A DNA stretch of 64,000 nt from Puccinia triticina. Lineage: Eukaryota; Basidiomycota; Pucciniomycetes; Pucciniales; Pucciniaceae. Positions 27,400 to 57,237 of the stretch are shown in pieces; the first letter of the stretch is position 1, and every line of letters starts with the position of its first letter. The notes under the pieces were generated by a model, which was not told where the DNA came from, ran no database searches, and saw nothing but the letters and a program-made list of their open reading frames with translations. Where the stretch lies: assembly GCF_026914185.1 (NCBI RefSeq), contig NC_070572.1:310001-374000 (forward strand), given 5' to 3'. Made by a program: the position numbers and the translations under genes.

Positions 27400-27969
27400 A
27401 ATCTATTCATATTGAACATTTACTGTGACATACTGCTCCCCACCTATGTTAATTTTGGATTTGAAAGTGGATCACAGGTGCAGTTGAGGAAATATAGCTT
27501 GTCATCTCATATCCCAACCACACAGGAAAGTAAACTGCAGGGGAGGATTGCAAGTTTGAATGGGTGGTTGGAACACCTGAAATATTGGGGGTATCTTGGG
27601 GGTTTTTGAGGTGGGTTTGGTGAGGTTGGCGGAGAAGGCAATTGTGAGCTAGCAGAGGTTGAGTGGCCTTGGGCCCTGCAGCGGCGAAGCCGCCTTGTAG
27701 TAGTCTTTGTATAACGAACTCAGCGGAGTCGGGGGGACCAGTCCTACGCAACTACATAAAAATCTTTCCTTCAAGGATGGTGCACATCAGGTTTGATCGG
27801 CTCCATGTTTGAGAATGATCCAGGCATCATCGCCACCGCCATACCCACTTTCAAGTAAAGTGCGTACTTACATACATCTCTCGCTCAATCGCATGAAAGC
27901 GGTGTTCCCATTGAGCGGGAATCTCAGATTTCTCATTCTCCATCTGACCAAAAAACTCACAAGACCAAC
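27400..27969. other. Upstream region of secreted-protein gene
   Basis: No separate gene seen. From about 27715 the sequence resembles the upstream region of the paralogue at 37030 (from about 36835), including ACATAAAAA (about 27754) versus GCATAAAAA, a possible TATA-like element kept in both. Confidence 0.45.
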
Positions 27970-29415
27970 ATGCACTACACCATTGCTAAGTGCTTGCCTT
28001 TAGTGTTCTATTGCATCGCAGAAAGCGCCCTGATGACACTGCCAGAGAAAGAGAAATTTGATCTTGACTTGAACAATGAGCCGACGGAGGAATTTTCCAA
28101 TGTGTTGGTATTCTCCATGTTTTCAGAGCCTTCATTTTCTGCTTCCCAAGCTACTACTGTAAAAAGAGAACCGGCGGACCCTTGTTACACAGGTTGCGTC
28201 CAAGATTCCTCTTGTACTATCCCTAATTTAAATGGTGTTTGCAAGCGGAAAAGTGACTTCATGGATGTCAAACCAATAACCAAGAAGTTAGACCATGAAT
28301 CAAAGGCACAACTGAATTTTCCAGAGAAGGACAGCAATGCTTGCAAGAAACTGAAAGTCAAAGGAAAATTCTTATTGCCAGATCAATCCCAATCACAAAA
28401 AATCAAAAAAGAACACACTGAATTATCAAAAGGCACTTTCAATGTTCAAGCAGACCATGATATTGGAGTAGAAAAAATTCAGAAAAAGGCTCAAGTCTTT
28501 GATGTTTCTGACTGGATTTTTTACATGATGGATCCAAAGTTGGAATTAAACCAAGAAATTCCTAGAAAGTTTGACCCTATAAAAAAGCTATCAAACTTCC
28601 TGAGTAGCTTGAAAGAAGAGAAACCCTCTGCTGGGGGTTTTTCTTTCATTTCAAGAGAAAAAGATGTAAATGCCTTTCCCAGATATCATGGAAAAAAATC
28701 TGAACTTCCCTATCCAAAATTCATCAATAAAAGGCAAAAAGAAAAAGAAACCCTTGGAATAATACTGAGAATCTCTGATGAAAAATTGGAACTTGAGAAT
28801 TATTTTGATTTTTTTGAAGAGATTCAAGATAGATTGGTATCAAAGTTTGAAGTCAACCCCACCCCATCTGTCAAAAAATCTGGAAGCAAGCTCCAATTGG
28901 TTCTAGCCCAAGCAAGGATTAGATATATGAAGAAAATAATTAAAACAACAACAACATTGATAGTTTTGTATCTTTCACTCTTTGGTGAGCATGAGGGGGG
29001 CAAGCTGACAGAAACAGGCCTTAGCAACATCATGGATTTCTTTAAATCTTTCTGGACAAAAATTGAAAATGGTAAAGGTTTAGAATCCAAGGACAAGAAT
29101 GACTTTGAAATGAAATTGCATGATTTGGTGAACTGCCAATCAATAAAAAACTTCAAGACAAACAACATGAGTACTTCAAGTACCCTTTTAGGAATGCCTT
29201 GGAGGATTGTTGGACATTGGTCGGAGATAAAGAGAGGAAGAGCATCACTTACAAATGCTGTTAAGAAATGTAACTCAAAAAGATTAGAATACCATCTAGA
29301 TTTGGTTGAGATGATCAACAAAATCATTTTCTATTTAAATTATCAATACATTTCCAATAGATACAGAAAAAATGAAAAGCATCAAATTGAAGCCATTCAA
29401 GAAGAAGGGGGATGA
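27970..29415 (+). CDS. Probable secreted protein, repeated family, unknown function
   Basis: One 481-codon exon. I do not recognise the family. Residues 1-20 have a short basic start and hydrophobic stretch (LPLVFYCIA) compatible with a signal peptide. The putative mature start carries FDLDLNNEP, which contains DLNxxP, the pattern of plant EAR repressor motifs, at residues 33-38. A four-Cys segment (DPCYTGCV to VCKRK) follows near 75-98, then a lysine-rich middle. A helical C-terminal half includes a LYLSLFGEHEGG block that is also conserved in the copy at 57.5-58.0 kb. A second copy, split by the giant transposon, lies at 37030 and 57238. Conserved upstream sequence suggests whole-gene duplication. 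It could be a host-directed secreted protein or a repeat-borne gene. Function unproven. Confidence 0.65.
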   Translation: MHYTIAKCLPLVFYCIAESALMTLPEKEKFDLDLNNEPTEEFSNVLVFSMFSEPSFSASQATTVKREPADPCYTGCVQDSSCTIPNLNGVCKRKSDFMDVKPITKKLDHESKAQLNFPEKDSNACKKLKVKGKFLLPDQSQSQKIKKEHTELSKGTFNVQADHDIGVEKIQKKAQVFDVSDWIFYMMDPKLELNQEIPRKFDPIKKLSNFLSSLKEEKPSAGGFSFISREKDVNAFPRYHGKKSELPYPKFINKRQKEKETLGIILRISDEKLELENYFDFFEEIQDRLVSKFEVNPTPSVKKSGSKLQLVLAQARIRYMKKIIKTTTTLIVLYLSLFGEHEGGKLTETGLSNIMDFFKSFWTKIENGKGLESKDKNDFEMKLHDLVNCQSIKNFKTNNMSTSSTLLGMPWRIVGHWSEIKRGRASLTNAVKKCNSKRLEYHLDLVEMINKIIFYLNYQYISNRYRKNEKHQIEAIQEEGG

Positions 29416-36633: not shown

Positions 36634-37029
36634 CTGTCACTAATCAATCTTTTTTCTCTCAAATCCCAAACACTGTCTCACGTGCATTTATCCTCTAGCT
36701 CTCTAAACAAACAACTCCTTAATATCTGCTCTAATTCTCATCTGAACCTTGATTCTCATCCAAGATCCCAGTTTTCACCGGGAGCCCTGTGACAAAATTT
36801 AATTGCAGTCGCGCTGTATCTGACATACATACTGAGTGAACTCCGTGCAGTCGAAAAGGGGGGGGGGTCCGCAACTGCATAAAAACTCAACCCCTCTTCA
36901 ATGGCGCACATAAAGTTTGATCGGCCCCATTTTTGGAACTGAAGTCCAGGCATCGCCCACACCGCCAAACCAGCTTTCAAGCAGAATTGCGTATTTACGT
37001 ATCTGAGCGGAGTTAACAAGACGGCCAAG

Positions 37030-37573
37030 ATGAATCACACCTGGGCTCAATGGCTGCCTTTTGCGTTCCATTTCTTCGCAAAAAGCGCCCTAATGACACT
37101 GCCAGGCAAAGAAAAAGTTGATTTGGACTTGAACGAGCTGCAGCGGGAGGAATCTTCAAGTGGTTTGTTATCTTATACGTTGTCAGCGCCATCATTTTCT
37201 GTTTCCAGAGCTTGTCCTGCTGTAAAAAGAGAACCAGTGGACCCTTGTTATGCAGGTTGCCTCCATGACTACACTTGCACCATCCCCAATTCAAATGGTG
37301 CTTGCAAACGTAAAAGTGACTTGCTGGATGTCAAACCAATAACAAAGAAGTTAGACTGTGGGGCAGAGACACAGCTGGCTTTACCAAAACAAGAAGACAA
37401 GGCTTATAAAAACCTGGCAGGCAACAGCAAATTCATCATGCCAGAACAATCCAAATTATTACAAAAAATCAAAAAAGAATCAAAAGATCAAGCATCACAA
37501 GATGCTCACAATGTTCAAACCAATAACTATAATGAAAGAGAGAAAAATCAGGAGAAAGATCAGCAGGGCTTCA
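37030..37573 (+). pseudogene. 5' half of second secreted-protein family gene
   Basis: Homologous to the first ~181 codons of the gene at 27970: same hydrophobic leader, ALMTLP, DLDLNE, four-Cys segment and KPITKKLD. DLNxxP is lost (DLNELQ). The giant transposon interrupts it at the TCA of 37571-37573, and the gene resumes at 57238. Open reading continues into the transposon end as an artefact. Confidence 0.8.
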
Positions 37574-37707
37574 CACTTCAAACATTGTCCAATGTTCTGG
37601 ACGGAATATCCTGTAAAGGTCACGGAATATCCGGTAAATATTCGGAATATCCGGTCATTTTCCGGATCCGAGATCCCTCTCTCATTTACTGTCTCACAAT
37701 CATTGCC
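37574..37707 (+). repeat. Left terminal inverted repeat of giant transposon
   Basis: Contains three spaced copies of CGGAATATCC followed by T/GGT, candidates for transposase binding sites, then GGATCC and TCTCTCATTTACTGTCTCAC. Weaker similarity to the right end continues some 30 bp further in. Confidence 0.85.
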
Positions 37708-38429
37708 ACTTTCTCACGCTCACCCAGCACGTCTGGAGACTTCATTTCATTTTCAGTTGTAACAGTACAGAACAACAGTGACAAAGAGGAAGAAAAATAA
37801 AAAAACACATGCTTCCGTTGGATTTAGAGGATCTCATCCTCACTGTCATCTGCGAGTGAGTTAGACAGGCTTGCAAGGAATGCTAGAGAGGCGTGTACGG
37901 CTCGGATTGAAGGACTATCGCCGAGGGGGTGGTACGTTTCAGGGATGGATTGGTCTGTAAACCAAAGACCATTACTACTTACGTTGTCGCCGAATGAATC
38001 ACCTGCATCAGCTGATTCATAACTCGCTTCAGACGACGTTTGGTATCCTTGGAAGTCGGCGTGAGACGCGGAAGCGCGTAAATCGTGCAAATCTGGGTAT
38101 GCGAGGATGGGGAGGGGAGGGGGGGAGGAATGGGGACCATGTGGATTTGTCAGCTGAGGAACCAGAGCTCTGGGGGGAGTTGTGTATCTCGATTTGCTTA
38201 CCAGCTGATTCCATTACTGTCGTAGAAGGTGATAGACAAGGCTCAAAATGAAGGTTTGCCGCCGGGGCGGTCGTAGAGTCTGAGCCTGAGGCGTCGTCCT
38301 CAGCCCTTGGGAGTGATGGGGAAAAGTAAACGTCCTGCTCGGCGGCGATTAGCAGCTCCAATGAAGCTTCTGTGAGCTGAGGAAGAGCCGGGGCAGTTGA
38401 AGTGTCTGAGGCGTCGTCCTCGGCCTTCG

Positions 38430-39900
38430 GGAGTGGCAGGGAAGACAGGGCGTCCTCCTCGACGACGGCTGGGAGCTCCGAGACAGCCCCTGGAAGCTGA
38501 GGGGTCGTCCTCGACCTTTGGGAGTGGCGGGGAAGACGGGGTGTGCTCTTCGACGGCGGTTGGGAGCTCCGAGACGGCCCCTGGAAGCTGAGGGAGGGCA
38601 GGAGCGCCGTCGTTGGCCTTCGGGAATGGCGGGGAAGACGAGGCTTCCTCCTCGTCGACGGTTGGGAGCTCTGGAACAGCCCCCGGAAGCTGAGGAAGGG
38701 CTGGGGGGTCGTCCTTGGCCTTTGAGAGCGGCGGGGAGGAGGGGGCGTCCCCCTCGTCGGCGGTTGGGAGCGTTGAGGCAGCTTCAGGGAGCTGAGGAGG
38801 GGCTGGGGCGTCGTCCTCGGCCTTTGGGAGTGGCGGGGAAGACGGGACGTGCTCTTCGACGGCGGTTGGGAGCTTCAAAACAGTCCCTGGAAGCTGAGGG
38901 GGGGCTGGAGCGCCGTCGTCGGCCTTCGGGAATGGCGGGGAAGACAAGGCTTGCTCCTCGTCGACGGTTGGGAGCTCCGAGACAGCCCCTGGAAGCTGAG
39001 GGAGGGCTGGGGCGTCGTCCTCGGCCTTTGGGAGTGGCGGGGAAGACGGGACGTGCTGTTCGACGGCGGTTAGGAGCTCCGAGACAGCCCCTGGAAGCTG
39101 AGGAGGGGCTGGGGCGTCGTCCTCGGCCTTCGGGAGTGGCGGGGAAGACGGGGCGTGCTGTTTGACGGCGGTTAGGAGCTCCGAGACGGCCCCTGGAAGC
39201 TGAGGGAGGGCTGGGGCGTCGTCCTTGACCTTCAGGAGTGGCTGGGAGCTCCGAGACAGCCCCTGGAAGCTGAGGGGTCGTCCTCGACCTTTGGGAGTGG
39301 CGGGGAAGACGGGGCGTGCTCTTCGACGGTGATTGGGAGCTCCAAAACAGTCCCTGGAAGCTGAGGGAGGGCTGGAGCGCCGTCGTTGGCCTTTGGGAAT
39401 GGCGGGGAAGACAAGGCTTCCTCCTTGTCAACGGTTGGGAGCTCCGGAACAGCCCCCGGAAGCTGAGGAAGGGCTGGGGGGTTGTCCTTGGCCTTTGAGA
39501 GCGGCGGGGAGGAGGGGGCGTCCCCCTCGTCGGCGGTTGGGAGCGTTGAGGCAGCTTCAGGGAGCTGAGGAGGGGCTGGGGCGTCGTCCTTGGCCTTCGG
39601 GAGTGGCGGGGAAGACGGGACGTGCTCTTCGACGGCAGTTGGGAGCTCCAAAACAGTCCCTGGAAGCTGAGGGGGGGCTGGAGCGCCGTCGTCGGCCTTC
39701 GGGAATGGCAGGGAAGACGAGGCTTCCTCCTCGTTGATGGTTGGGAGCTCCGAGACAGCCCCTGGAAGCTGAGGAGGGGCTGGGGGGTCGTCCTCTGCCT
39801 TCGGGAGTGGCGGGGAAGACGAGTCTTCCTCCTCGTCAACGGTTGGGAGCTTTGAGCCAGCTTCTGGGAGCTGAGGAGCGGCAGGGGCGGTCTCAAGGGC
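38430..39900 (-). repeat. 102-bp coding minisatellite, ~14 units
   Basis: Tandem 102-bp units encode 34 residues each on the minus strand of gene C. Two units share the same ~11-bp internal deletion that shifts frame, so they arose by duplication of a defective unit or by conversion. The plus strand also stays open over long stretches, but only as a shadow of the repeat. Confidence 0.75.
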
Positions 39901-40384
39901 TGGGGTGTTCTCCTCAGCCTTGATGGAAGGCCTGTCCCAGACGCTGGGCTTGCCAGTTTTGAAAGCTTCAGTTTGCTCTGGCGTAGAGCAGCCGAATACG
40001 TTCAGGAAGACTGATAGTCAGCTTAGTGAAAGATGCCACACGGAAGCCGGATAGGCACTAACCTTGCTTAAAATCAACCGGCTGAGTGTACGCGGGAACC
40101 CAAAATTCAAAAGTAGCGGATCCGAAGTGGGTCGTTGGGGGCGCTGGTGGGAGTTGACTCTCTGGTTGTTGTTGGAGTGGCGTGATGCTTGTCAGAGGCA
40201 CAAATGGCGGGGGGGGCGACTGAAGTCGCAACTTCGCCGCTTCAATATCCTTGTCAAGCCATTGGAAGATATCGTCGACGGTGCGCGGCCCGGGTTCTTC
40301 AATAGGATCCTCAATGGGGGCCTTGTGATAATCAGTGTCCACTTCCATGGGCACAATGGCTTCGCTGATGGTGCCGTCGCACTT

Positions 40385-41356
40385 TGTGAGCCTGAGTCTC
40401 TATAGTGACAGCAGGACACAAGAAATGGGGGGGCAATAGTTGGATTTCTTGGGATAAAGAAATTACAACTATAAAAGAAAAAAAGAGAAAGAGAGAGAGA
40501 AACCAAGCAGGATAAGAAGGAAGGGAAGTACTAGGTTATTCTAGTGGGAATGCACGTCCACTGGCAATGCTACTCTTCAGAAGAGTGCTGCTAATCTGTG
40601 CAAGAAGTGCTACAGCTTCCTCTCAGGAGGGTATCTGGATTAGATAAGTCTTAATCCAGCCACAGTTTTTTTAGACTTCTCTCTGGACAGTCAAGGTTCT
40701 TAAAGGGAAACCTGAGGGACAGCCCTGAACCTAGATTTTGAGGCAAAGGCCTGATGATAAGAAGGGACAGCCCTGTGATCAAGATGGAGGCAAAGGCCTA
40801 TAGATTTGGAGGGACAGCCCTGTGATCAAGGAGGAAGCAAAGCAAGAAGAAAAGGCAGATCCAGCAAGACACAGAGTTGTACCTCTGAGATAAACAAGGT
40901 TCAGTGAAAGAGGTTACTTACTGTCAATATCCTAGGCGCCTGTGACGGTAGGTATACTGGGAGTATAGTAGGCTCTTTGGTGGTGATCCTAGAGTTATCT
41001 GGGTGGTGGTTCTGGTGTGCTGAAGTCTGTGGATCCGCCTCAGGCAAGGGGGATCCTGACTACGAAAATTTTCACAGTTTGCTTATGTAATTTACATATG
41101 TACATGTGGTTTGGCGCGCCTAGTAGCGCTGACACGTCACAACTGCGCAAGGGCGCTACAACTCAGTAACTCAGGGAAGGAGTATAGTTACAATGAATTG
41201 GTAAGTTGTAACTAGGGTTAAAATTGCATGAGGAAACAGAATATGAAGTCAAAACAGGGATATCTCTTAAGATGAAAAAGATATAAAGTAATTTATATGT
41301 AACAAAGGTAGAACAGGCAGCTTTTTAGGTCAGCTGTGATGACTCTAAGGCTGACA
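40385..41356 (+). mobile_element. Solo LTR, 972 bp, in accessory gene C
   Basis: Starts TGTGAGCCTGAG, ends AAGGCTGACA, flanked by CACTT (40380-40384, 41357-41361). About 95% similar by eye to 55880-56895. No internal retroelement sequence, so it formed by LTR-LTR recombination. Confidence 0.88.
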
Positions 41357-42915
41357 CACTTAGACTCGCATAGCTGATTGTCCTGGACTTTGAGACTATC
41401 GTTCTTCTGTGGCAATAGGGATACACTTTTCACTGGTAAGATCGAGTGCGGGAGGGGGATGTTACACATTTCCAACGGCGCATTCGAGTAGATGTCCGAG
41501 GGAATATGAGTCATACTACAGTTGGCATTTGAGGGCGAAATGGGAACGTTAACCGCGTCCAACGGCACATCCATGTAGATGGCCGGGGCAGTATCATTCA
41601 CACTGGAATTGGCGTTATCCGGCAATGACTTTGAGAAATTGATGATCGTTAAAATCTGCATGTTGTCGGATTGGAAGAGGTCGGGTTTTATCGCAAGATG
41701 CGCTGCGTCAGAGGGAATTTTGCTGGATATGATATCGATTAGGATTGGACTGATTCTGCCAGAGGATTTCTTGGATGATGATGCAACCGGTGATCGATCT
41801 TGAAGCTTGGACGGGGTTAGTGGTTCAGATTTGGTGCGTCCCACTGGTGAATCAATGATGGAAACGTTCTTTGAGGTTGTTGCTGGCGGGTGTGGCATGG
41901 AGCAAGACGCCGCGGGAACTTCATCCTGTCGCGGGGTAGAGAAGATGAGCGGCATTCCTGGATGCCACAAATGTGGCGATTTGTTCACTTCCCGTTGGGG
42001 TTCACCGGGTGGTTGCTTAGCCGGTTTGTGCTGGGTTACGGGCTTCGCCGGTTTGGGAGCTGGGCATTTCGTCGGAGTTGGGTTTGAAGCTGGACTGACA
42101 TCAACAGATTTACCTTTTTCTGGAGCCTTGAAACGCCCACCGGAGCGCGTGTGTGGGCCACGAGTACTGCCTGGCACTGGAGTACTGATGGTGTCGCCTT
42201 TTTCTGGAGTCTTGAAACGCGCACCGGAGCGCGTTCGTGGGCCACAGGTACTGCCTGACACTGGAGTACTGATGGTGTCATCACGGTAACACGAGGGACT
42301 CCCGCTGGTTAGCTCTTGCGCAGGGGGGCTTGAAGTCGGGACGCGACCACCAGTGCGGGTATCCTTCACCGGTTCGATGTCCTCATCTTCGGATCCACTC
42401 TCAGAGTCAGATGTGGCGCGATCAGAGATGGCCGTCAGCTCAGAGCCTGAGTCCAAGTCTTGTTCTGGGCATTGTTTTAGTACATATAATGTCCGGTCAG
42501 CTATAGATTCAAACCAGTGGATCAACAAATACGTACCCTGCAATTTCTCTGTAGCAAATTTCCTAAGCTCATTGATCTTCAGTTTGCGAGGGGCCTCAAT
42601 TGGGTTTTCAAGGTTACGCAGCATTTCCTTTATTTGGGCGATAGTCTTGCCAACAAGACGGGGGTCATAGGGAAATCTGCCAGGATCGGGTGACACTGGC
42701 GTACATTCCAGGCAATTAGCAACACGGAATTAGCAGTTCATGGTAAAAGGCACACCAGCTTGCAAACGTCGAGTGGCCAGCTCTCTGATTTCGTCAATCT
42801 TGATCTTTTGAGGTATATCGATTGTGCCGTCCAGTCGCTTGAGGAAACTGACAATGTCCCTCGTGGTCATTCCAACCAGTCAAGAGTCATATGGCCCACT
42901 GCGTGAAGGAGTCAT

Positions 42916-43860
42916 TGTACGATTAATAATATGAAGGCCTGGCTGGTGCTGGAGGGGTTATGAAGCGCTGTCAGTGTATGCTGGGGTAGGGAGAGCGGAG
43001 CTGGAACGGGATTCAATCACATATTTATATATTCCAAGTCCCTCCAGTTCAGCCGGTGCAAGGCTCATGATCGATGAGAATGTTGAACAACAACACCTTT
43101 GTTAGCCGATTGCTTGGGTGCGACCGGGAGCTGTGCTGGTCACCTGTCGTATTTCTGGTCGCAGGCCTAGGTTTCAGTAGTTTATTAGTGATGATTTCAA
43201 CACAAGTGATCTGTAAGATCTGACGGAGGATTGGACTTGAACCTTTCTGGTGTCAGACTGTACGGTACACGGAGCCGTTGTTCAAGCATTCCAATGTGAG
43301 TCTATAGAGTCGATTTCAATTTTCAAAGCGGCCTCTTCTGACGGAGCTACCACCGTCTGAGAGTTGATGGATGCAATACACTGAGTCGAGAGACCCCCGC
43401 CGGGCATGCCGGGATAGTTGAGCCAGAGAGAGATTTTGGCCTCATATGTATAATACCGTGTACCGGAGTAGACCAGATCAACTGCGCTGAGAAACTTCAA
43501 ATCATCAGCAAGACCTCCACTACTTATAAGTTGAAGTTGATAGTCGATAGATAACATTAGGTTCGGACAATAGATAATATACTGGTTTCTTGGTTTCACA
43601 GTAGCTGATAGATGATAGATCAACAAGCTTCTGCAAGGATGATGTCAGTGACGGCAGATGGTGCGTTGTACATATGTATTTTGCCAGACATTCAACGGTT
43701 TTTCCTGAAAGCTTGCTTATAACTGACCGGGAAACTGTTCTCCATGACGGCCTTCAGCAGAGAAAGAGGAATGGCCAGGTGAGTATTCCGGAATTTTCTT
43801 CATCCACAAATCAGATCCTTATGACTGATTTTATCCATCTATCTAATACAAAGACCCCAA
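42916..43860. promoter_or_regulatory. Divergent intergenic region between accessory genes C and D
   Basis: Genes C (minus) and D (plus) point away from this segment, so it should hold both promoters. A minus-strand frame at 43282-43626 has no recognisable domain. I saw no clear TATA box. Confidence 0.35.
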
Positions 43861-44219
43861 GAAGCTATTAGTTCCGGGCTTGAAGAAGCACCTCGAGAGC
43901 TGGGGTATACCTTTTGATTCAAAAGCTCGTCGCGGTGAATTAGTTCAAATCTACAAGGACAACAGACCGCTTTCCCTGCGTGGTAATCCAAGCACCACTA
44001 CCAAAGGCCGCGGAAAAAGATTATTTGTGCCTGATCAGGCACAGGACAACCCACTGGCCCAGACGACTAAGCGTCCACGTAGAGGCCAGCCGGCAAGTAG
44101 TCAAGCGGAATCTCCAGCGGACCCGCCGCCTAGAGGCAAGCGCGTAATCAAGCAGCCTACACGCCCAACGGAGCCTCAGGCAGAGGCAGTTTCAAAGTCT
44201 AACGCGCAGCCCGGCACGA

Positions 44220-45111
44220 TGTGGAACTCCTAAAAGATCAGGAAAGAGCTGTGAGGGGAAATAGTCAACTACACTACTAATAATGTAGAAGAGGCTACGG
44301 GTGCTGGTGAGGCTGCCCTCTTGACTAATGCTGATGGAGAGAGGGTTACACTAAGAAAAAGAAAAGGGTGTGGCTGATGATTCTCTTTGACTTAGATGGC
44401 TTTAACACTTTATGAGTCTGAGGTGTATCAATCCTACTGAGTGAGAGAGGAGAAGTGAGAAGGGGAAAAGCAGAAGCTCTTGAGAGTCACTCTGAGATGG
44501 GTAATGAGATATATGCTGGGGGATATATTTCTATGGTGATGAAAGTGTATCTAAGTGTGATGTGTAAAGGTGCTACAGAGGGGATGTAGTAGAAAGTGCA
44601 TGATCAGGAATACAACATCTAGAGGGGTGTTTATATATGTGAGAAGTACTACAGGGGGGTGATACATGATGAGCACATAGTAACAATATCTGAAGATGAG
44701 CAGTAATGATGAAGGTGCAATGACCAAGGAGTGTACATGAAAGGTAACTATGTAGAAGATGAAATAATGATGAGCATTTGATAATAACTACAAGAGCTAT
44801 GAAGGAATGTACTGCTGATATCATATGAAGGGTAAAAATGAGTAATGAAGTTATGTAAGATCTGCAGTCCTATGTAGCTATGATACTAATGAATGATGTA
44901 TGTAATAATGCTAAGGATATGTATGAAGAAAATACCTGCCAAAACTATACATGCCAATAACTGCTGGTCCATTTGGAAATCCTAGGTGAAATGAGTGGGT
45001 GACTAGGGGTAAAATGGGGTGTAGAATCTGAATATGAAGTAATAATGAAGTATTTATGAAGGGTTTTGGTGATATGAGGGTGATAGTATGAACAGGAACA
45101 GGGTTACCACA
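44220..45111 (+). mobile_element. 892-bp LTR-like insertion in accessory gene D
   Basis: Runs from TGTGGAACTCC to GGGTTACCACA, so the ends form TGTGG/CCACA. Flanks ACGA and ACAA may be a 4-bp duplication with one change. Removing it joins QPG to TSTNGLPES in frame and restores the repeat of gene D. The interior is AT-rich, non-coding. Confidence 0.6.
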
Positions 45112-46789
45112 ACAAGCACCAACGGCCTACCGGAATCCCACAACGCCCCCTCTTGCCCAAAGCAACAGGCTGAGTCCAGCCTGCCTCATGCAGATGCGCC
45201 AGAGGTTTTGCCTCGACCGGATCCTATACCACCTGTAGTCTCAAAGACCAACGCAGTGCCGGGCAAAATTATCAATGGGCAACCAGATATCCACCAGCGG
45301 ACGGAATCTAGCCTTATTTTGAACGGTTTACCTCGGTCCAATCATATATCACCCATGATCTCGCAGACCAATGCACAGCCCGGCACAAGTGCCACTGGCC
45401 AACCAGAACCCGAAAGCACCCCCCCTTGCCCCAAGCAACGGGCTGAATCCAGCGCAAACGGTTTGCCTCTACCGGATTCTGTACCGCCCGTGGTTTCAGA
45501 GACCAACGCGCAGTCGGGCGCGTCCACCAATGGTCAACCTGAATCACACAGCAAGCCCACTTCATCGAAGCGACGGGCTGAGTCCAGCTTCCCTGAAGAT
45601 GCTTCAAATGGTTTGCCTCAGCCAAATCCCTTGTCAAGGCCCCGAGTTGAATCTAGCCTTCCTCAGGAGGATGAGTTAGCCGATTTGCCTCAGTCACATA
45701 TATCCTCAGAAACCCCTCAGCTGGTAAGTGGTAACTTGATTCATTCCTTTCCAAAATTGACTGACGATGGATGTTGAAATCCACATACAGGACCCTGCTT
45801 ATCCTTCGAAACGCCCACGCAGCTATCCGACACCAATGTTGGACCCTATCCGCCGGCGACCCGCATGGATTGTTGAGCGGCATTTGGCCACGCTCGGTAA
45901 GCTTAATTCTGGAGAGGTTCAGGATCACACGAGCCCCGGGACTATGGATAATGGGGCAAATGATAGTGAAGTGTCTTTGGGCCATGTTGCTCACAATTCT
46001 GTACTTCCTGAGACAGCGGATAATGGTAAAAACAGCAATCGAGCGTGCCTCGGCGTCGACTTGATAAACTTTTCCGATTCTGCGGAGGTGCCTCAACCGC
46101 TTGCGTTGTTGCAATACAACAATTCAAGCATTCACCCCAACTCCCCTAGTACGAAAGATCACAATGGGGGTGTTGACCCACGCCCCAATTCCACTCAGGT
46201 ACCTGCTCAGGGTCATAGTACACAATCCTATGACTTCGGCTCTCCAGCTGCACGATCCCCCTTTCAAGAAACTGCTTTGGAACCGGCTGATCTGGCGAGT
46301 TCTACATCGAAGATCCAACCTGCTCATGGAGAACAATGGGGAAGCAGTTCAGAGGATCCTTTGATTCCAGTGAATGGCCTATCCGACGAACAGACAAGTG
46401 TGCCGCAGTTGCTCCCATTGGTACTTAACTACCATCCCATCGAGTGCCCAACCCCGGTCACCACCTCTCTCAATCCTATTCCCTTCGAACAGGAATTACC
46501 ATCAGTCGAGTACAACCAGGAAGAAATACAAGCTCCGGATCTGCTGATTGACTTAGACAGCTTCCCTTCAGTAGAAGTAACGGAAGACCAATCGTCCTCG
46601 AGGGTTCCTACTGCTATTCACGGGGACCTTGCAGGCTTGATGCCGGAGGGCTTCAACAGTCCTCGACTACTATTACACGGGTCAACAGATCCTACAACCT
46701 TTGAAGCTGCTATGGCCTCAAACCCACGGCCAGGCAGCTCGAATACCATTGCGAGCGAGCTTTTTCACCACCAACCGCACCATAACGCC

Positions 46790-47990
46790 GCCAGCCAGAG
46801 CTTACCGGACCCACCGCCGCTGCCGCGGAGTGTCACACCTAGCGGTGATGCTTCCCCGCAGCTGCCTGCCAGCTTAGAAACTGCGAACAAGTCCGCTCAA
46901 CACCAACGGGACCATAACACGGCCAACCGGAGCTTACAGGACCCACCCTTGCTGCTGCCGAGTGCCACTCCGAGGGGCGATGCTTCCCAGCAGCTGCCTG
47001 CCGGCCCAGAGGCTGTCAACGAGCCCGCTCGACACCCACCGGACTACAACACGGCCGATCAGAGCTTAGCGGACCCACCGCCGCTGCCGCCGAGTGCCAC
47101 TCCGAGGGGCGATGCTTCCCAGCAGCTGCCTGCCGGCCCAGAGGCTGTCAACGAGCCCGCTCGACACCCACCGGACTACAAGAGTGTCACACCTAGAGGT
47201 GATGCTTCCCCGCAGCTGCCTGCCAGCTTAGAGACTGCGAACGAGTCCGCTCGACACCAACGGGACCATAACACGGCCAACCGGAGCTTACAGGACCCAC
47301 CCTCGCTGCCGCCGAGTGCCACTCCGAGGGGCGATGCTTCCCAGAAGCTGCCTGCCGGCCCAGAGGCTGTCAACAAGCCCGCTCGACACCCACCGGACTA
47401 CAACACGGCCGATCAGAGCTTAGCGGACCCACCGCCGCTGCCGCCGAGTGCCACTCCCAGGGGTGATGCTTCCCAGCAGCTGCCTGCCGGCCCAGAGGCT
47501 GTCAACGAGCCCGCTCGACACCAACCGGACCATAACACGGCCGATCAGAGCTTAGCGGACCCACCGCCACTGCCGCCGAGTGCCACTCCAAGGAGCGATG
47601 CTTCCTAGCAGCTGCCTGCTGGCCCAGAGGCTGTCAACGAGCCCGCTCGACACCAACCGGACCATAACACGGCCGATCAGAGCTTAGCGGACCCACCGCC
47701 GCTGCCGCCGAGTGCCACTCCAAGGAGCAATGCTTTCCAGCAGCTGCCTGCCGGCCCAGAGGCTGTCAACGAGCCCGCTCGACACCAACCGGACTACAAC
47801 ACGGGCGATCCGAGCTTACCGGACCCACCCCCGCTGCCGCCGAGCGTGGCTCCTAGCGGTGATGCTTCCCAGCAGCTGCCTGCCAGCTTGGAAGCTGCGA
47901 ACAAGCCCGCTGATCACCACCAAGCGGACTGTAACATCGCCGATCAGAACTTACCGGACCCACTGCTGCAGGTATTGCCTAGTTGCGACG
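46790..47990 (+). repeat. 132-bp coding minisatellite in gene D, ~9 units
   Basis: Units encode about 44 residues, GDASQQLPAGPEAVNEPARH.. with Pro-rich ends. One unit carries TCC TAG where all the others have TCC CAG, locating the premature stop as a single C-to-T change. Confidence 0.8.
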
Positions 47991-50967
47991 TTGGAATTCC
48001 TTCTTCACATCTAGGCAAGCACCCCCCAACAGCGTCAACAGAAAGCCCGCGTGAGTTTCACAAATTGTATACTTTTCGAAGAATCTGTCACCATCCTAAC
48101 CCCCTTGTGCCATCTTACATACCAGGTGAAGAGGACTTGGATCAGAGACGCAAGCGTTTAAAGGAGGTCTATAAGGAAAATCACAACTCTGCAACCCCAT
48201 CCGATCGAACCCAAAAAACGAGAAGACGCATTGTTATCACAACGTCATCAGATGAGGAAGATGGTCACAACTTTTGCCCAGAAATTGGTAGCCGGCCAGG
48301 CTTTGCAAACAAAGATCGGGCAGATTCCCCTCAACTCGATTCCACCTTGCCCCCAACACCTCCGCTCGCTGCCCCCCAGCCCACGACGTCTCAGCCCGCT
48401 GCCCCTGATCAGTCCGCTACACCTCAGCTTGTCGCGCTTCGACCCCCTCCCCCCACCCCCCCCCCAATACCCACAGCGACAATGGCACACAGATCCGAAG
48501 AAACTTACTATTGCGAAGATCAAGGAGGTACTGACCGAATTTGCAATCAAACCGCACTCGAGTGACAAGAAGGAAAACTACGTAAAGCATTACGAAACCT
48601 TGGCTAAACAGCAAGAGGAAGTGTGGGCTAAATACCTGGAAGAAAAGGAATTGTGGGCGAAACACTCGGGACCGTCATGCGAGAGGCATCAAGCAAACAA
48701 GGAGACGCAGAAGACTCCCCAGCTTGATCAAGAAATACCGGTAAACGTTCCCGTCACCCAATCCAAAACAGCAAAAGGTAAACAGAGAGCGGATGATCCT
48801 GCCCATGTAGGTGGCTCTCTGAGCGTTCGAAGTGTCAAAGTGCTAGAGCCCCCGAATCTTTGCGACAAGGATTCAGTAGAACCAGTTCCGGAGATCCCCG
48901 ATCTGATCAACCTATCACCGGCGGTTAATCCACCACGCCAGTTACCCTCCCACAAGCAGCCGGGACCATCGACCGCCCAACAGTTCAAAACCCCGTTTCC
49001 TACGCAACGGCTAATCCGATGGGCCGCAACCGTGGATGACGCAATGCACCAAATGGATGTAGATGATCCCCCCATTCACACCGACAAACCCGATGATCCT
49101 GCTGTACCGGGGAATTTATTGGATATTGCTAAGTCATTACTACAATCTATGCAAACCATAGCAACTGGTGTCTCATCACTCCAAGCCACACCTGCCTCGG
49201 ATCCGACTCATTCGGGCGCTGCCTCCCGTTTGCGCCCACCCTCCCGAGCTGTGCCATCAGACCAAGAAGAAGAAATTCACAAAACCCCCAGTGCAAGGCC
49301 CCGTGGCCGCAGGGCGACCCCAAGACCTGCACCCTCTGGACCCATACCACGAGGTGGACCCATCCCGGTATGCTTTGTTTAGCCTAGTGGGGATGATACC
49401 GTATTACTGATCTATTTTTCCTATATTAGGATGCAATACGGCAACACTGTGCCACCCTCCTTGGGCGCGGTCCGCGAGATCTACTCCCACCTCCTGCAAC
49501 TGCCGCGGAACGGAGATCCTGGATTTACACGCTAGAGCAGCAATCCGACGGACACGCGTCTGACACCAATAGCAACAGCAGCGTCGCTCGTGACAGTAGC
49601 TGAGAAAATGACAGTGCCGGCGAAGACGGTGAGGAGGATCACATGGAATTAGATGTTGAGTATCGAAGTGGTCGGCCGCGCAACCCAAAAGCTTCCCGAG
49701 AGACCCTCCAAATCATGTGACGCATGATGCGGCAAGCAGGGGTTCAATCTTTCCGGCCAGATCTTGGTTTGCCGACAAGCACGGCCGCCAACACATTCCT
49801 GTGGGACCTCGCCGTTTGGATCTTCATGACATTAGTGGATGCTGGCAAATACAAGGACGTCACGCGGGAGACATGTAGTGAAGAGTTGGCTGCCACAATG
49901 ATATATAATCATGCTACCAATATTCTGATGAAAAGGTCAGGATTTCAAATTCTTCACTGTAGCTGGCGTTGGTAACTAACATGCATGATCTTAGGTATCG
50001 GGAACAAAATAGGATGACACCTGAGCAGAGAGCATTACGCGACAAGGCCCACCGACGAAATACCCGTCGGTCAAGGGTAAAGCATTTTTTGAAACCCTTT
50101 TCTACAGCTTGCATGGTAGCTGATATCTCCCGACTCTTTTGATAATATGTACATAGCTTCGCGAGTGGCGCATCTCCACACTTCTGTCCGAGCCGTCTCT
50201 CGCCCAACTCTTGCCAATTGTGGAAAGCTGCTGCAGTGAAGACAAGACCGACGACGAGGCACCCGAGCCGCCGAATGCGCGACAAAAATCTTGTGTCACG
50301 CTCACGATGCCATGGCGCCATTCACGAGTCACTCGTCTCATGATGGAGCTCGATCGAATAAGAAGCAATCGCCGGGACAAGCACAGCAATGCACCCCCAA
50401 CGCGTACACGCAGGCAATCAGCAAACCCAAATCAAAGTACAGTCTCAGCCCCGCATGGGTTACCAATAGGAACGTACAACCAAGACTGGTTGCGCCAACT
50501 TTTGGGTTACGACGCTGAGAGCTTGAAGCCCACGACAGCGCCCGCCATTGGTCACTTCATCGAGGTCCTCAAGACTCTTTGAACCGGCTGTGCAATGATG
50601 TGCCAACCTGTCATTTTTCTTTCATCTTATCCTGTCCTTGTTTGTAATATTAGAACCACTGAAGCAATACAAGAACATTCAAATTCTATTTGCTTGTTGA
50701 TCTGTGGCAGGGCGGGGCACAAGATGATGGGCTTGGTAGAAAATTATGTACTTGTGTACGAAGGTATGTAAGAATATCAAATATGGGACTGATTTGCGCA
50801 TATGTAACGGATCGGAGTCATGACAAAGGTAAGCCCAACGGGCCTGGGCCAGGCTAACCAGCGGCTGTAGCGGCCGAGCTTGCCCAACAGCTACAGATCC
50901 ACCCTTCCCCATTCCACACTCGGCCATCACATCAGTTACACATCTCGCAAATCCTGTTCAAGACGTG

Positions 50968-53900
50968 CCATGCCCACCGGCCGTTCCACAGTTTTGTGTA
51001 CTTGTCAACAATGCATTGTATTCCAAAGCATCGATCCCTCGACCAGAATTGCACGACCTGGACAGCAAGTAAGTGGGGACACCAGAAAGTCACATCTTAT
51101 CAAAGAGCAACAACTAGCAAGTTGGGCCCGGGGGGCAAACGAAGACGGTAAACTACTTTACTCTTTTGACACTCACACTTCAGTGGCGTTGCTGACAATT
51201 CTGATGAATTACTTGAAGGACCGTCTGTTGAATTTCAAATTAGTGAATTTCGTCACCATGGAAACCAGAATGAAGACGAATCGTCCGGATATGATAATGA
51301 GGTACAAGACCAACTCACTCAGGCGATTGCTGATATGTCTTTGCAAGCATTGGAGTCGGAGCCTGCGCCAGCCACGGTTCATGCGCCAGCCACGGTTCAT
51401 GCGCCAGCCACGGTTCATGCGCCAACCACGGTTCATGCGCCAACCACGGTTCATGCGCCAGCCACGGTTCATGCGCCAGCCACGGTTCATGCGCCAGCCA
51501 CGGTTCATGCGCCAGCCACGGTTCATGCGCCAGCCACGGTTCATGCGCCAGCCACGGTTCATGCGCCAGCCACGATTCAATACAATTGCTGTCAGTCTTT
51601 AACTCATTGGCTCTGATTAGCACATAGACTAACATGCCCTTTGCAGCTCGCTTCTTCTCGCAATTCTCTATCAGTTCAATTAGTCCCTCCATAACGTTCA
51701 TCACTCTCAAAACAGCGATTTTCTACGTTACCAAAATGGTTTCAGGTTATACATCGAGTTGCATGCTGAAAATGGATCGTGAACTCGTTAAATTAATAGT
51801 CACTCAGGGGCTGCATGGCACTTCTACCCCCACTGATCTATCCTTCGCCAATAACTCAACCATCAAAGCTATTCCTGGTGACACTCGCACGGTCCTGAAG
51901 AACCTAGCGATAGAACCAGATCTCATTTATCGCATATGCTGTCCCAAGTGTTTTGCGATGTACCCGGACGACAAAAGTGCACCCCAGACATGCTCTTTTC
52001 GCCACCTTCCTGAAAAGCCTCCGAAAGCCGTACAAAGCAAAGCCAAACAAAGCAAAGCTGCACAAGGCAAAGCTGCACAAGACAAAGCGGAACGAGGCAA
52101 CATTACACAAGACAAGCAAGCAGAACAAGGCAACGTTACACAAGACGAGCAGCCCTCTACCGGAGCTGCGCAAGCCAAACAAACATCTGCCGGAACTGAA
52201 CAAGTCAAACAGGTACGATTCGAACAAACCTCTTCCGGAGCTGCCGAAGACGGATCTCCCGGGACTCAGTTAGACGGAGACAAATCTGCCAAAACTGCAC
52301 TAGACGATCGATTGTATATATGCGGGGCCGAACTTTTTGACGAAACCTCACAATATTTTTCGCCCCTTCGTCGTTTTGCCGTTCAAGATCTCAACAGCTG
52401 GCTCGCTCGCTTCTTCAGCAGAGAGGGTATCAAAGAGGCACTAGAGCAAACGGCCGAGAAGTCCAGGACTCTGTACGACAAGAAGAAAGAGATGACTGAC
52501 ATTCACGACTCCCGTGGCTGGAGAGAGTTCCTTGGTCCTGACGGTCAACAGTACACCGCCAGTAGCAGCAACATCACATTTGCTATGTTCATGGATGGTA
52601 TCAATTCCCATGGGAATAAAATATCTGGCAAACACGTCTCAATCACTTTTATGATCATGGTTTGCATGAGTTTACCTGTCTTGCTTCGCTACAATCCCGA
52701 AAATATCTTCTTAGTAGGAATTGCCCCTGGCCCACACGAACCCTCTCTCGAACAAATTAATTGGATTATGCAACCGATCGTCAAACAGCTCACAGCTCTG
52801 TGTCTGTCCAAAACGTACCAACACCCCAATGGTCGGGTGGTTTCGGCAGCCCTTTTGACCTTCTTTGCGGACTTGCCAGCGCTTCGTCGGGCTCTTGGAT
52901 TTGCAGGCCCCACTGCAACGCGCATGTGCTCTTATTGTCTTCTGCCCAAAAATGAGATAAGCAAAATTAAAGTCGAATCGTGGCCTAAACGGACCCTCGA
53001 CAACCACCGACGCTGGGCGAGCAAGTCTCGTGAAGCAGCCAGTGTAGAAGAAAAAGACCAAATCTTATTTGAGCACGGGGTACGCTACTCCGTCATGTTG
53101 GAACTTCCATATTGGAACATCCTCGAGTACCACGTGGTGGATTCGATGCACAATCTACTCCTAGGCCTGCTTAATTGGCACTGTCGACGATTTTGGCAAA
53201 TGTCTGACGATGATGCTGAAGCAGACATAGAATCTGTCTCCCAAGCTGAACTCGACGACTTATCCTCTAGTAGTGATGAGGATCCTCCCAAAGCTCCAAA
53301 GCCCAGACCTCGCAAAAAAGCTCCAAGGCCCAGACCTCGCGAACCACCGAACGAGCAGGGCGAACCGGGTTTTCTGGATCTGTTGTTTGGTGACGCAACG
53401 GAAACCCATGATTCCGAGTTCATACCTGATGCCAGCACTCATGAATGGGGGGGGAAGTGGGTCCCCCCTCCGATGGCATGGCCGTATTGGACGGGCCTGT
53501 GCTGGCTCGCATCAATTCATCCCTTAAGCGAATTCGCACCCCTACATGGATCAAACAAGTGATCCCGGTGCTTGGAAAGGCGGCCTTCGGCTGCCTCAAG
53601 GCTGACGAATGGCGGAATCTATTTACGGTCCAGCTTCCCCTCATCTTGCCGGCCATTTGGAATGACAATCACACCGCTTCCGAGTCTCTACTCCATAACT
53701 TTGCTCATCTGGTTTCTCTTGTAAACCTCGCGCTCAAAAGGAAAATGACGATCGACCGCGTGGAGAAGTACCGCCACCACATATATCAGTACATTGGAAG
53801 TTGCCAAATTCTTTTCCCGGATGTCAACCTCGCTCCCAATCACCACATGGTGTTCCACCTGGCAGACTGTCTGGACAGATTTGGACCTTGTCGTGCATGG

Positions 53901-54590
53901 TGGTCGTTCTCGATGGAGCGACTCATGGCTCATGTCTTGAAGAGTACAGGAAATAACCGACTAGGTAAGTGCTTGTTTGTGAGGAGAAAACAGGAATCAA
54001 AACACTGATTTTGAGTATTCACAGGTCAACTCGAAATAACATACTTGACAAACTTCGCCAGAATCGGCAATCTGCGGGCAGCGCTGGCGAGTGGTAGTTT
54101 TCCCAAATCTTTCAAACCCTATGTGAAACAGATACAAGCTCTCTACCAACCCATCCCATTCGCCGCGGAAACCGCGACCAATCGGCGTCAAAGCACCCTC
54201 GAAGTTGGCATGCTAAACCAACTAATTGATTGGCTAAATCAAATTTTCCCCCTCGAGAACGGCGGCCAGTGGACTGCGTCCAGCAAATGGAGCATGTCTT
54301 TGGCATCCGTGAACAAGGCCCCTGTCAACTCACTAATCCAAATCTTCCCAAACTTGAAGCAGGGCGACGTGGTGTATTCAAGCATGAAAACTAACAAAAG
54401 TAACTGTGTAGTCAAGCTGAAGCCGGGTTCTCAAACAAAGTATGGGATGATCAAAACGATTTTCACTCATTTACGAAGGGCCCCCGGTTCCGAAGCTGTG
54501 AAAGATACTTGGCTAGCAGTACATCCGCTGGTTACCGTCCGTCGTAACCCCAACCCTTTTGCCCAACTCCACACCAGGAAAAAAAAATAG
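50968..54590 (+). pseudogene. Plavaka/Tnp2-like (CACTA) transposase
   Basis: Transposase expected to cut at the CACTTC ends. An N-terminal exon (from ATG 50968) has CTCQQC and GQQVSGDTRKSHL. An 18-bp HAPATV-coding repeat exon follows (51184-51589). The main exon (about 51647 on) has a Cys cluster CCPKCFAMYP..C and CGAELF, YFSPLRRFAVQDLNSWL, FMDGINSHGNK (Asp codon 52594), FFADLPALRRALGF (Asp 52870) and DSMHNLLLGLLNWH (Asp 53140). The last exon is 54025-54590 after a GT-AG intron (53965-54024). The frame breaks once, at the G8 run near 53444-53452, after which ADEWRNLFTVQLPLILPAIW continues in another frame. The first intron junction is also out of phase as I read it. If both are sequence errors the gene is intact. 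Confidence 0.8.
51359..51578 (+). repeat. 18-bp coding microrepeat, ~12 copies
   Basis: Near-identical GCGCCAGCCACGGTTCAT units encode PATVHA in the transposase frame. The other two plus frames and one minus frame are also open here, but phase with the flanking splice sites supports PATVHA. Confidence 0.8.
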
Positions 54591-54719
54591 TCACTTGATG
54601 GCAAGTGACATGATGCAGCTTTGGTTTCTGCTCCAGAGCTACTCCAGCGCTGCTCCAAGTCTGCTCCACCAGCACTTTTAGAGCTTGCAGGACTGCACCA
54701 GAGCACTCAATGTGGCACA

Positions 54720-55640
54720 GTCAGCTGATCCTAATTTTTTCCCAGGAACAGCTGATGCTCATCATAAGCTGAGCAGTAGGCATTGACTGAGCCTGGGCCA
54801 AAGCTGAGCATTGGCTGAGCCTGGGCCACAGCTGAGCATTGGATATTCCAAGCCTGAAACAAATCCAAGTGTCAGCTGGACCAAGAATATTCCAAATCTG
54901 AGCATCAACTTAGCCAACAATGGTCCAAAGCTGAGCATCATCTTGGAAAAGGCTTGTGCAGAGCTTAGGATCAGCTAGGACAATACTGTTCCAAAGATTA
55001 ACACCAGCTGGGCCAAAACTTTTCAAAAGCTGCGCATCATCTGAGCCAATGCTGGTACAAAGCTGAGCATTGGCTGAGCCAAGGCTGTGCTAAAGCTGAG
55101 TATCAGATGTTTTGAGACTATTCAAAAGATTAATATCACCTGAGCCAAGGCTTTTCCACAGCTGAGCATCAGCTGAGCCAAGGCTGGTCCACAGCTGAGC
55201 ATCAGCTGAGCCAAGGCTGGTCCACAGCTGATCATCAGCTGAGCCAAGGCTGGTCCACAGCTGAGCATCAGCTGAGCCAAGGCTGGTCCACAGCTGATCA
55301 TCAGCTGAGCCAAGGTTGGTCCACAGCTGAGCATCAGCTGAGCCAAGGCTGGTCCACAGATGAGCATAGGCTGTTACAGGAGTGGTCAGACTCAGAATCT
55401 GAGCATTGGCTGGGCTGAGATTGATCCAAAGCTAAAAATCAGCTGAGCCAATACTGGTCCAAAGCTGAGCATTGGCTGGGCCAATGATAGTCCTAATCTG
55501 AGTCTAAGCTGAGCCATGACTGGAATAAAGCTGAAAATAAGCTGGGCCAGGACTGGTTCTGAGCTGGGCAACAAAGCTGAGCATGAGCTGGGCACCAAAG
55601 CTGAGCATAAGCTGGGAGCTAAAGCTGAGTATCAGCTGAC
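54720..55640 (+). repeat. GCTGAGC minisatellite downstream of transposase
   Basis: Irregular tandem repeats built on AGCTGAGCATCAGCTGAGC and CCAAGGCTGGTCCACA, most regular (about 48-bp period) between 55140 and 55370. CAGCTGAG/CTGAGCATCAGCTGAG is partly self-complementary. An 11-bp AGATGATGGGT repeat follows at about 55705-55763. Non-coding. Confidence 0.7.
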
Positions 55641-55879
55641 CAGAAATGGGGATCAGTGGTGCCCAGCAAAAACTGAGGATCTCCTGTGGAAATTCTTAAA
55701 CTGGTTAGATGGTGGGTAGATGATGGGTAGATGATGGGTAGATGATGGGTAGATGGTGGGTAGCCCGCTGGAGCTGGCATGATGTCACATGTCATCAAGT
55801 GACTATTTTTTTTTGCTGGTGCCAACAGTACGACGCAGTTGGCGTTGCCTTGCGAAAAGTCGAATACAATCAAGAGCAC

Positions 55880-56895
55880 TGTGAGCCTGAGTCTCTATAG
55901 TGACAGCAGGACACAAGAAATGGGGGACAACAGTTTGATTTCTTGGGATAAAGAAAATACAACTGTAAGAGAAAAAGAGAAAGAGAGAGAAAGAAACCAA
56001 GCAGGATAAGGTAGAAGAGAAGTACTAGGTTATTCTAGTGGGAATGCACGTCCACTGGCAATGCTACTCTTCAGAAGAGTGCTGCTAATCTGTGCTAGAA
56101 GTGCTACAGCTTCCTCTCAGGAGGGTATCTGGATTAGATAAGTTTAATCCAGCCACAGTTTTTTAGACTTCTCTCTGGACAGTCAAGGTTCTTAATGGGA
56201 AACCTGAGGGACAGCCCTGCAACCTAGATTTTGAGGCAAAGGCCAAGTGATTATAAGGGACAGCCCTGTGATCAAGATAGAGGCAAAGGCCTGTAGAATT
56301 GAAGGGACAGCCCTGTGATCAAGATAGAGGCAAAGGCCTGTAGAATTGGAGGGACAGCCCTGTGATCAAGGAGGAGGCAAAGCAAGAAGAAAAGGCAGAT
56401 CAAGCAAGACACAGAGTTGTACCTCTGAGATAATCAAGGTTCAGTGAAAGAGGTTACTTACTGTCAATATCCTAGGCGCCTGTGACGGTAGGTATACTGG
56501 GAGTAGAGTAGGCTCTTTGGTGGTGATCCTGGGGTTATCTGGGTGGTGGTTCTGGTGTGCTGAAGTCTGTAGATCCGCCTCAGGCAAGGGGGATCCTGAC
56601 TACGAAAATTTTCACAGTTTGCTTATGTAATTTACATATGTACATGTGGTTTGGCGCGCCTGGTAGCGCTGACACGTCACAACTGCGCAAGGGCGCCATA
56701 ACTCAGTAACTCAGGGAAGGAGTATAGTTACAAGGAATTGATAAGTTGTAACTAGGGTTAAAATTGCATGAGGAAACAGAATATGAAGTCAAAACAAGGT
56801 TATCTCTTAAGATGAAAAAGATATAAAGTAATTTATATGTAACAAAGGTAGAACAGGCAGCTTTTAGGTCAGCTGTGATGACTCTAAGGCTGACA
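55880..56895 (+). mobile_element. Solo LTR, 1,016 bp
   Basis: Same family and orientation as 40385-41356. Starts TGTGAGCCTGAG, ends AAGGCTGACA, flanked by AGCAC (55875-55879, 56896-56900). Different target duplications show two independent insertions, not one element. It carries one additional copy of a ~44-bp internal repeat (AGGGACAGCCCTGTGATC). Confidence 0.88.
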
Positions 56896-57100
56896 AGCAC
56901 ATAGTACTTCTTGAGGAGGTTTTGGCACAATGCGCGTGGATGACTTACAAGCCCAAAGAGCTTGTCCCGGCTATAGATTTTGAAACTATAGCAGTAGTCT
57001 CCCTTGATTGTTAATTTTCTCATTTTGTATCATGTCTGCTATTTTGTACACAATATACATTGATGGACCCCGAGGATGTGCTCGGTGAGCATCAGACATT

Positions 57101-57234
57101 GGAAATGATCGTGAGACAGTAAATGAGAGAGGGATCCCGGATCCAGAAAATGACCGGATATTCCGAATATTTACCGGATATTCCGTGACCTTTACAGGAT
57201 ATTCCGTCCGGAACATCGGACAATGTTTGAAGTG
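57101..57234 (-). repeat. Right terminal inverted repeat of giant transposon
   Basis: Inverted copy of 37574-37707 with the three CGGAATATCC motifs. Ends GAAGTG immediately before TCA (57235-57237). Confidence 0.85.
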
Positions 57235-57237
57235 TCA

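What the first reader, a model, noticed from the sequence alone, without database searches (positions are those of the whole stretch)
37574..57234. 19.7-kb CACTA/Plavaka transposon carrying two large accessory genes
Inverted 134-bp ends starting CACTTC, a 3-bp TCA duplication and a Plavaka/Tnp2-like transposase define one transposable unit of unusual size. Beyond the transposase it carries two divergent multi-exon genes with SAP/HeH-like segments and long tandem repeats. The combination suggests a multi-component transposition or genome-interaction module rather than passive cargo.
Basis: partly seen in the sequence, partly recalled or inferred. Interest (0 to 1): 0.9.

Follow-up and report, generated by a model that had tools for sequence, protein, structure and literature searches.

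The report
Decayed rust CACTA transposon, partner genes
This is a worn-out 19.7-kb cut-and-paste transposon of the wheat leaf rust fungus; one of its two extra genes looks like a regular partner of this kind of transposase rather than cargo, and short relatives with similar ends carry a piece of a host signalling gene.

Summary
In Puccinia triticina Pt15 haplotype A, 37574-57234 is one unit: 164-nt inverted arms (92%), TSD TCA, and flanks that align separately to adjacent parts of an uninterrupted paralogue at 27.9-29.4 kb. It is a rust EnSpm/CACTA element; the Plavaka profile does not match it. About 4.1 kb is nested insertion, and all three genes of this copy are broken.

Genes C, D and the transposase occur together at 4 of 4 near copies. 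The C-terminal domain of gene C lies within 25 kb of 29 of 29 transposase loci of 45% identity or more, and of 0 of 38 more distant ones. So gene C is a regular partner; gene D was found only in the 4 close copies.

Each TIR holds three GGAATATCC sites 20-21 bp apart. Best reading: gene C works like plant TnpA, binding phased end sites beside a Tnp2-type transposase (binding inferred, not shown). Three short relatives carry a stretch of a RasGAP gene. New variant of a known kind.

The parts
37574..37733 (+). left terminal inverted repeat, starts CACTTC; TSD TCA at 37571-37573
57075..57234 (-). right terminal inverted repeat; TSD TCA at 57235-57237
37602..37652 (+). three exact CGGAATATCC sites (37602, 37623, 37643), spacing 21 and 20 bp
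   Evidence: conserved block in the alignment of 18 related ends
57156..57206 (-). three exact CGGAATATCC sites in inverted orientation (57156, 57176, 57197), spacing 20 and 21 bp
37824..42879 (-). gene D (boundaries approximate): tandem 41-aa units near 42754-42879 and 42574-42657, main exon 41362-42696, further coding pieces 40061-40378 and about 38167-40014 with a 102-bp (34-aa) tandem array; split by the nested insertion 40385-41356
43847..50582 (+). gene C (boundaries approximate): HeH-like unit at 43847-43984, proline-rich 132-bp repeats 46769-47963, HeH-like unit at 48486-48623, rust-specific C-terminal domain 49430-50582; in-frame TGA at 49601-49603 and 49718-49720, and nested repeat 44219-45112
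51628..57011 (+). Tnp2-type transposase: coding pieces 51628-53562, 53448-53999, 54015-54571, 55811-55879, 56895-57011; split by two nested insertions
40385..41356 (.). nested insertion, TG...CA ends, TSD CACTT; reads as a solo LTR (95% like 55880-56895)
44219..45112 (.). nested repeat absent from the C10 and C2 copies; ends not defined to the base
54572..55821 (.). nested 1250-bp element with 45-bp inverted ends CACCA..TGGTG and TSD CCA, itself CACTA-like; a relative sits at another site in the C2 copy
55880..56895 (.). nested insertion, TG...CA ends, TSD AGCAC; reads as a solo LTR
27859..29412 (+). uninterrupted paralogue of the gene into which the element inserted (no Pfam match), used as the related empty site

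Best explanation
37574-57234 is a decayed copy of a rust EnSpm (CACTA) cut-and-paste transposon that inserted into a gene and duplicated TCA (shown). The family encodes a Tnp2-type DDE transposase and a regular second gene, C, placed directly upstream on the same strand in the closest families (shown by co-location). I propose that gene C does the job of plant TnpA: its HeH-like units and its rust-specific helical C-terminal domain bind the three helically phased GGAATATCC sites in each TIR, bring the two ends together and load the transposase, which cuts at CACTTC and makes a 3-bp staggered insertion (DNA binding and end pairing inferred). Gene D is a later, lineage-specific third gene, under weaker but real purifying selection, perhaps a helper for end binding or against silencing (inferred, weak). 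The family has since been hypermutated at CpG, mainly TCG, and broken by nested insertions, so this copy is very probably unable to make its own proteins; its ends could still be mobilised in trans if a related source exists (inferred).
For: TIRs, TSD and paralogous empty site. Tnp2 profile match; D, D, C(2)C, HNLLLG..H and E motifs present in own, C10, C2, C7 and C5 as far as aligned. Rust EnSpm with CAC..GTG ends and 3-bp TSD is published, P. triticina included (PMC12730594, passages). Four loci carry D, C and transposase; TIRs at both ends for own, C10 (TSD ACA) and C7, one full and one truncated end for C2. Gene C domain: 28 of 29 transposase loci within 20 kb and 29 of 29 within 25 kb, against 0 of 38 distant transposase loci; about 0.3 gene C loci expected by chance; the nearest gene C is on the same strand and upstream within 10 kb at 16 of 29. 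dN/dS against C7: transposase 0.23 (0.19-0.28), C 0.39 (0.32-0.47), D 0.51 (0.41-0.63). Six exact CGGAATATCC sites, all in the TIRs, at 20-21 bp; block conserved in 18 related ends; a family with a 57%-identical transposase appears to end CACTTCAAA with GGATAT sites 21 bp apart. Own against C10: 430 differences in 15,263 sites, 350 transitions, 269 of them at CpG, 169 of those at TCG.
Against: No binding, expression or mobility data. HeH matches are sub-threshold; gene D is not matched and its profile does not align with gene C units (hhalign probability 5.6). The predicted fold of the gene C domain has no convincing PDB match. The partnership count uses single-sequence searches of capped depth (69 of 362 transposase candidates scored); a diverged gene C at the 38 distant loci would be missed. 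In 13 of 29 loci gene C is downstream, on the other strand or more than 10 kb away, so the fixed layout holds only for the closer families. Whether C and transposase lie between the same TIRs was checked for the four close copies only. C7 has no matching TSD.
Confidence: 0.68

Rival explanations
1. Genes C and D are captured host genes carried as passive cargo by a single-gene CACTA transposon, as host genes are in Pack-CACTA elements.
For: Gene capture does occur in this group: three short elements with similar ends hold a RasGAP gene stretch. No database protein with a known function resembles C or D.
Against: Gene C domain lies by 29 of 29 related transposase loci, and both genes show dN/dS well below 1. 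The named database relatives of gene C are rust hypothetical proteins and no separate host gene emerged: 29 of 32 gene C loci are near a transposase. For gene D this rival stays open: 4 loci only.
Confidence: 0.15
2. Gene C and/or D act in anti-silencing (as TET/JBP genes are proposed to do in other rust transposons, and as maize TnpA does at its methylated promoter), not in the transposition reaction.
For: The copies carry a strong CpG/TCG transition bias, so silencing pressure exists. Maize TnpA is described both as end-binding and as active on methylated promoters (PMC1636069 and PMC2613891, passages). TET/JBP genes in rust EnSpm are published (PMC12730594, passages).
Against: No enzymatic domain was found in the pieces tested. 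The TET/JBP profile search rang nowhere, controls included, so it is uninformative. The phased sites sit in the TIRs.
Confidence: 0.15
3. The co-location of C and transposase reflects two neighbouring mobile units or nested insertions, not one element.
For: Gaps and orientation vary: 13 of 29 loci are not same-strand, upstream and within 10 kb. Nested insertions are common here.
Against: In the four close copies all genes lie between the element's own ends (one end truncated in C2), at four different genomic sites. In the nine loci of at least 56% identity other than C7:2014557, gene C is upstream on the same strand, 1.4-3.0 kb away.
Confidence: 0.05

Closest known systems
Fungal/rust EnSpm (CACTA) families of Kojima 2025 (PMC12730594; abstract, passages and Discussion seen)
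   Same: CAC..GTG ends, 3-bp TSD, Tnp2-type transposase, stated for P. striiformis with relatives in P. triticina and other rusts
   Different: No TET/JBP gene was detected here, but that search was uninformative. The family's own entries are in supplements that I could not read, so this element may already be catalogued there
Plant CACTA elements Spm/En, Tam1 and the 20.5-kb soybean Tgmt* (PMC2613891, passages seen)
   Same: Two-protein logic: Tnp2/TnpD transposase plus a second protein that binds repeated sites near the ends; 3-bp TSD; large size; non-autonomous relatives
   Different: Gene C has no detected sequence relation to a known protein family above cut-off; here the repeated sites lie within long TIRs; gene D has no counterpart that I found
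Plavaka (PF18759)
   Same: Related Tnp2-like transposases; 7 of the 38 distant transposase loci overlap weak Plavaka profile matches
   Different: The element itself is not among the 29 Plavaka matches in the genome and its ends differ from those given for PlavakaA and PlavakaB
Pack-CACTA elements of plants (search listing only)
   Same: The short relatives C12a, C12b and C2b carry host gene sequence between ends of this family
   Different: Reported here in a rust fungus; only three full examples plus one partial, found in passing

Membership tests
EnSpm/CACTA superfamily | Tnp2/Transposase_21-type DDE transposase | tested here: met
   PF02992 38.2 bits, cut-off 28.6
EnSpm/CACTA superfamily | D, D, E catalytic residues with C(2)C and an H motif between the second D and E | tested here: met
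   motifs present in the aligned pieces of own, C10, C2, C7 and C5; C11 only as far as fetched; assignment of the catalytic residues by motif, from PMC12730594's description and recall
EnSpm/CACTA superfamily | CAC..GTG ends with 3-bp TSD | tested here: met
   own TCA, C10 ACA, and the RasGAP-bearing C12b CAC; not met at C7 and C2b, not testable at C2a and C12a
Plavaka | match to PF18759 | tested here: not met
   29 matches in the genome, none in the element; not listed for the transposase pieces at E <= 1
Plavaka | TGT..ACA or CATCA..TGATG ends | tested here: not met
   ends are CACTTC..GAAGTG; definition from PMC12730594 passages
HeH/LEM domain (PF12949), gene C | score over the curated cut-off | tested here: not met
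   HeH is the top match of 5 of 6 gene C units tested, 13.4-23.6 bits, all below 28.9
HeH/LEM/SAP-type fold, gene D | helix, extended loop, helix | tested here: inconclusive
TnpA-type end-binding partner (works like) | encoded together with the transposase | tested here: met
   for the four close copies within the same ends
TnpA-type end-binding partner (works like) | binds repeated sites near the ends | not testable with these tools
   candidate sites only
Pack-CACTA (for the short relatives) | host gene stretch between CACTA ends, with a donor copy lacking ends | tested here: met
   C12a, C12b, C2b align to C5:5487501-5495500 at 84-97%; no TIR match in those 8 kb; that the C5 copy is the host gene is inferred

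The most novel reading that the evidence does not exclude
Rust EnSpm transposons use a three-component system unlike that of plants: a Tnp2 transposase; an obligatory partner, gene C, of a new TnpA-like class built from HeH-like units and a rust-specific helical domain that reads helically phased sites inside long TIRs; and, in one young branch, a fast-evolving third protein, gene D. The same end-recognition system also mobilises captured host genes such as RasGAP.
Probability: 0.3. Interest if true: 0.65.

Novelty: new variant of a known kind. Interest (0 to 1): 0.46.

Why it matters
Fungal CACTA elements are abundant in rust genomes, yet I found no paper in hand that describes what their non-transposase genes do (searches; supplements could not be read). 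If gene C is the end-binding partner, it supplies a testable counterpart to plant TnpA that arose on an unrelated protein, and marks autonomous copies. The RasGAP-bearing relatives point to gene shuffling by CACTA elements in a rust pathogen.
Full report
What was checked. The window lies at C15:310001-374000 of a genome of 122,823,596 bases in 18 contigs. These figures equal those of Puccinia triticina Pt15 haplotype A in Table 1 of PMC9927501 (passages seen), and two proteins named PtA15 lie on contigs whose lengths equal C11 and C7. The assembly is described as gapless and phased, from HiFi reads of mean 14.6 kb.

The unit. Inverted arms of 164 nt, 92% complementary, enclose 19,341 nt. Both ends start CACTTCAAACATTGTCC and are flanked by TCA. 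The insertion is confirmed by a paralogue of the interrupted gene inside the same window: the left flank aligns up to 28493 and the right flank from 28502 of an uninterrupted 518-aa ORF at 27859-29412 (flanks compared separately).

Nested insertions and decay. Against the copies on C10 and C2, the window copy has four extra stretches: 40385-41356 (TG..CA, TSD CACTT) and 55880-56895 (TG..CA, TSD AGCAC), 95% alike over a 300-nt stretch and best read as solo LTRs; 54572-55821 (CACCA..TGGTG, TSD CCA), a small CACTA-like element; and 44219-45112, a repeat without defined ends. Together about 4.1 kb, leaving about 15.5 kb. They split gene D, gene C and the 3' part of the transposase, and gene C has two further in-frame stops at 49601 and 49718. 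Own and C10 differ at 430 of 15,263 aligned sites; 350 are transitions, 269 of these at CpG, and 169 of those 269 at TCG. This fits the TCG hypermutation of Pucciniomycotina repeats mentioned in PMC12730594 (Discussion seen). Other copies also show stops or truncations.

Class. The transposase matches Transposase_21/tnp2 over its cut-off. CAC..GTG ends and 3-bp TSD agree with rust EnSpm in PMC12730594 (passages).

Copies. The left end finds 41 matches (40 of 47 candidates scored). Genes D, C and transposase occur together at four loci: the window, C10:2196816-2212495 (TSD ACA), C2:2934876 onward (outer 67 bp of one end missing) and C7:3450174-3489812 (39.6 kb, about 75% DNA identity in the aligned parts, ends inward, no matching TSD). 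No other place with gene D was found in two searches.

Gene C is a regular partner. The gene C C-terminal domain of the C11 relative (P0001 is its annotated protein) finds 33 matches, 32 loci after joining two rows of C10. Of the 29 transposase loci with at least 45% identity, 22 have a gene C locus within 10 kb, 28 within 20 kb and 29 within 25 kb; of the 38 loci at 32-40% identity none has; about 0.3 are expected by chance. Three gene C loci (C18:461585, C4:417487, C7:3392255) have no listed transposase near. In 16 of 29 the nearest gene C is upstream, on the same strand and within 10 kb; in 5 it is downstream on the same strand within 10 kb; the other 8 are on the other strand or further off. 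Limits: capped single-sequence searches, so counts are lower bounds and a diverged gene C may be missed. Database relatives: 8 proteins among 2581 candidates and 5 in a profile search, 3 of them new; all those with a species name are rusts (P. triticina, P. sorghi, P. graminis, Phakopsora pachyrhizi). No Pfam family in the copy at hand matches them over its cut-off, though one (P0004) bears a precomputed PF26792 tag that I did not reproduce.

Selection. Against the C7 copy dN/dS is 0.23 for the transposase, 0.39 for C and 0.51 for D, with bootstrap intervals below 1. Against the nearer copies ratios are noisy and in places above 1, as expected after decay. So D was selected too, more loosely.

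End sites. CGGAATATCC occurs six times exactly in the window, three in each TIR, 20-21 bp apart and mirror-imaged; with one mismatch allowed there are two more, both inside the element. The GGAATATC core is among the most conserved blocks of 18 ends of this and related families. At C5:2410779 a family with a 57%-identical transposase appears to end CACTTCAAA, about 1.07 kb past the aligned transposase, with two GGATAT 21 bp apart; CACTTCAAA alone is not rare (3 in 17.4 kb there), so this is suggestive.

How it most likely works. Shown: TIRs, TSD, transposase, partner genes, phased sites, decay. Inferred: gene C binds the phased sites and assembles the ends, as TnpA does at subterminal repeats in maize (PMC2613891 and PMC1636069, passages); the transposase then cuts at CACTTC. 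Gene D's role is unknown; a helper in end binding or in escape from silencing is a guess.

Relatives with other contents. C12b (6,959 bp, TSD CAC), C2b (5,668 bp, no TSD) and C12a (7.1 kb, one end damaged) share a 3-4-kb interior that aligns at 84-97% to C5:5487501-5495500, where no TIR match was found. One of five pieces tested matches RasGAP (2.4e-17). A fourth, at C3:3692323, has one end of this type and 76-85% identity to the same locus. This reads as capture of a host RasGAP gene. C2b and C12a also keep a gene-D-type repeat near one end.

Noticed in passing
L015 1049-8007, L016 4146-9813, L014 about 1022-8130, L035 from 323; possible donor L034: Short elements with ends of this family carry a stretch of a RasGAP gene (Pfam RasGAP 2.4e-17 in one of five pieces); the similar locus on C5 has no such ends in the 8 kb looked at. 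Looks like gene capture by a CACTA element.
   Followed up: partly
window 54572-55821: A 1250-bp nested element with 45-bp inverted ends CACCA..TGGTG and a 3-bp TSD: a second, small CACTA-like family; relatives occur at other sites in the C2 copy and in the C5 locus.
   Followed up: partly
window 40385-41356 and 55880-56895: Two solo-LTR-like insertions of one family (TG..CA ends, 5-bp TSDs) within the same transposon.
   Followed up: partly
window 27859-29412, 36870-37562 and 57238-58076: Two paralogous genes without a Pfam match, about 74-78% alike in DNA, one interrupted by the transposon.
   Followed up: partly
window 22249-26439: 1397-aa open frame with RVT_2, integrase and GAG-pre-integrase matches: a Copia-type retrotransposon polyprotein.
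   Followed up: no
window 13313-13561: 21-bp unit repeated 11.9 times at 99% identity.
   Followed up: no
window 1556-2008 and 3441-3893; 6401-8098 and 15378-17046: Direct duplications of 454 and 1729 aligned bases at 93% and 77% identity.
   Followed up: no
   Followed up: no
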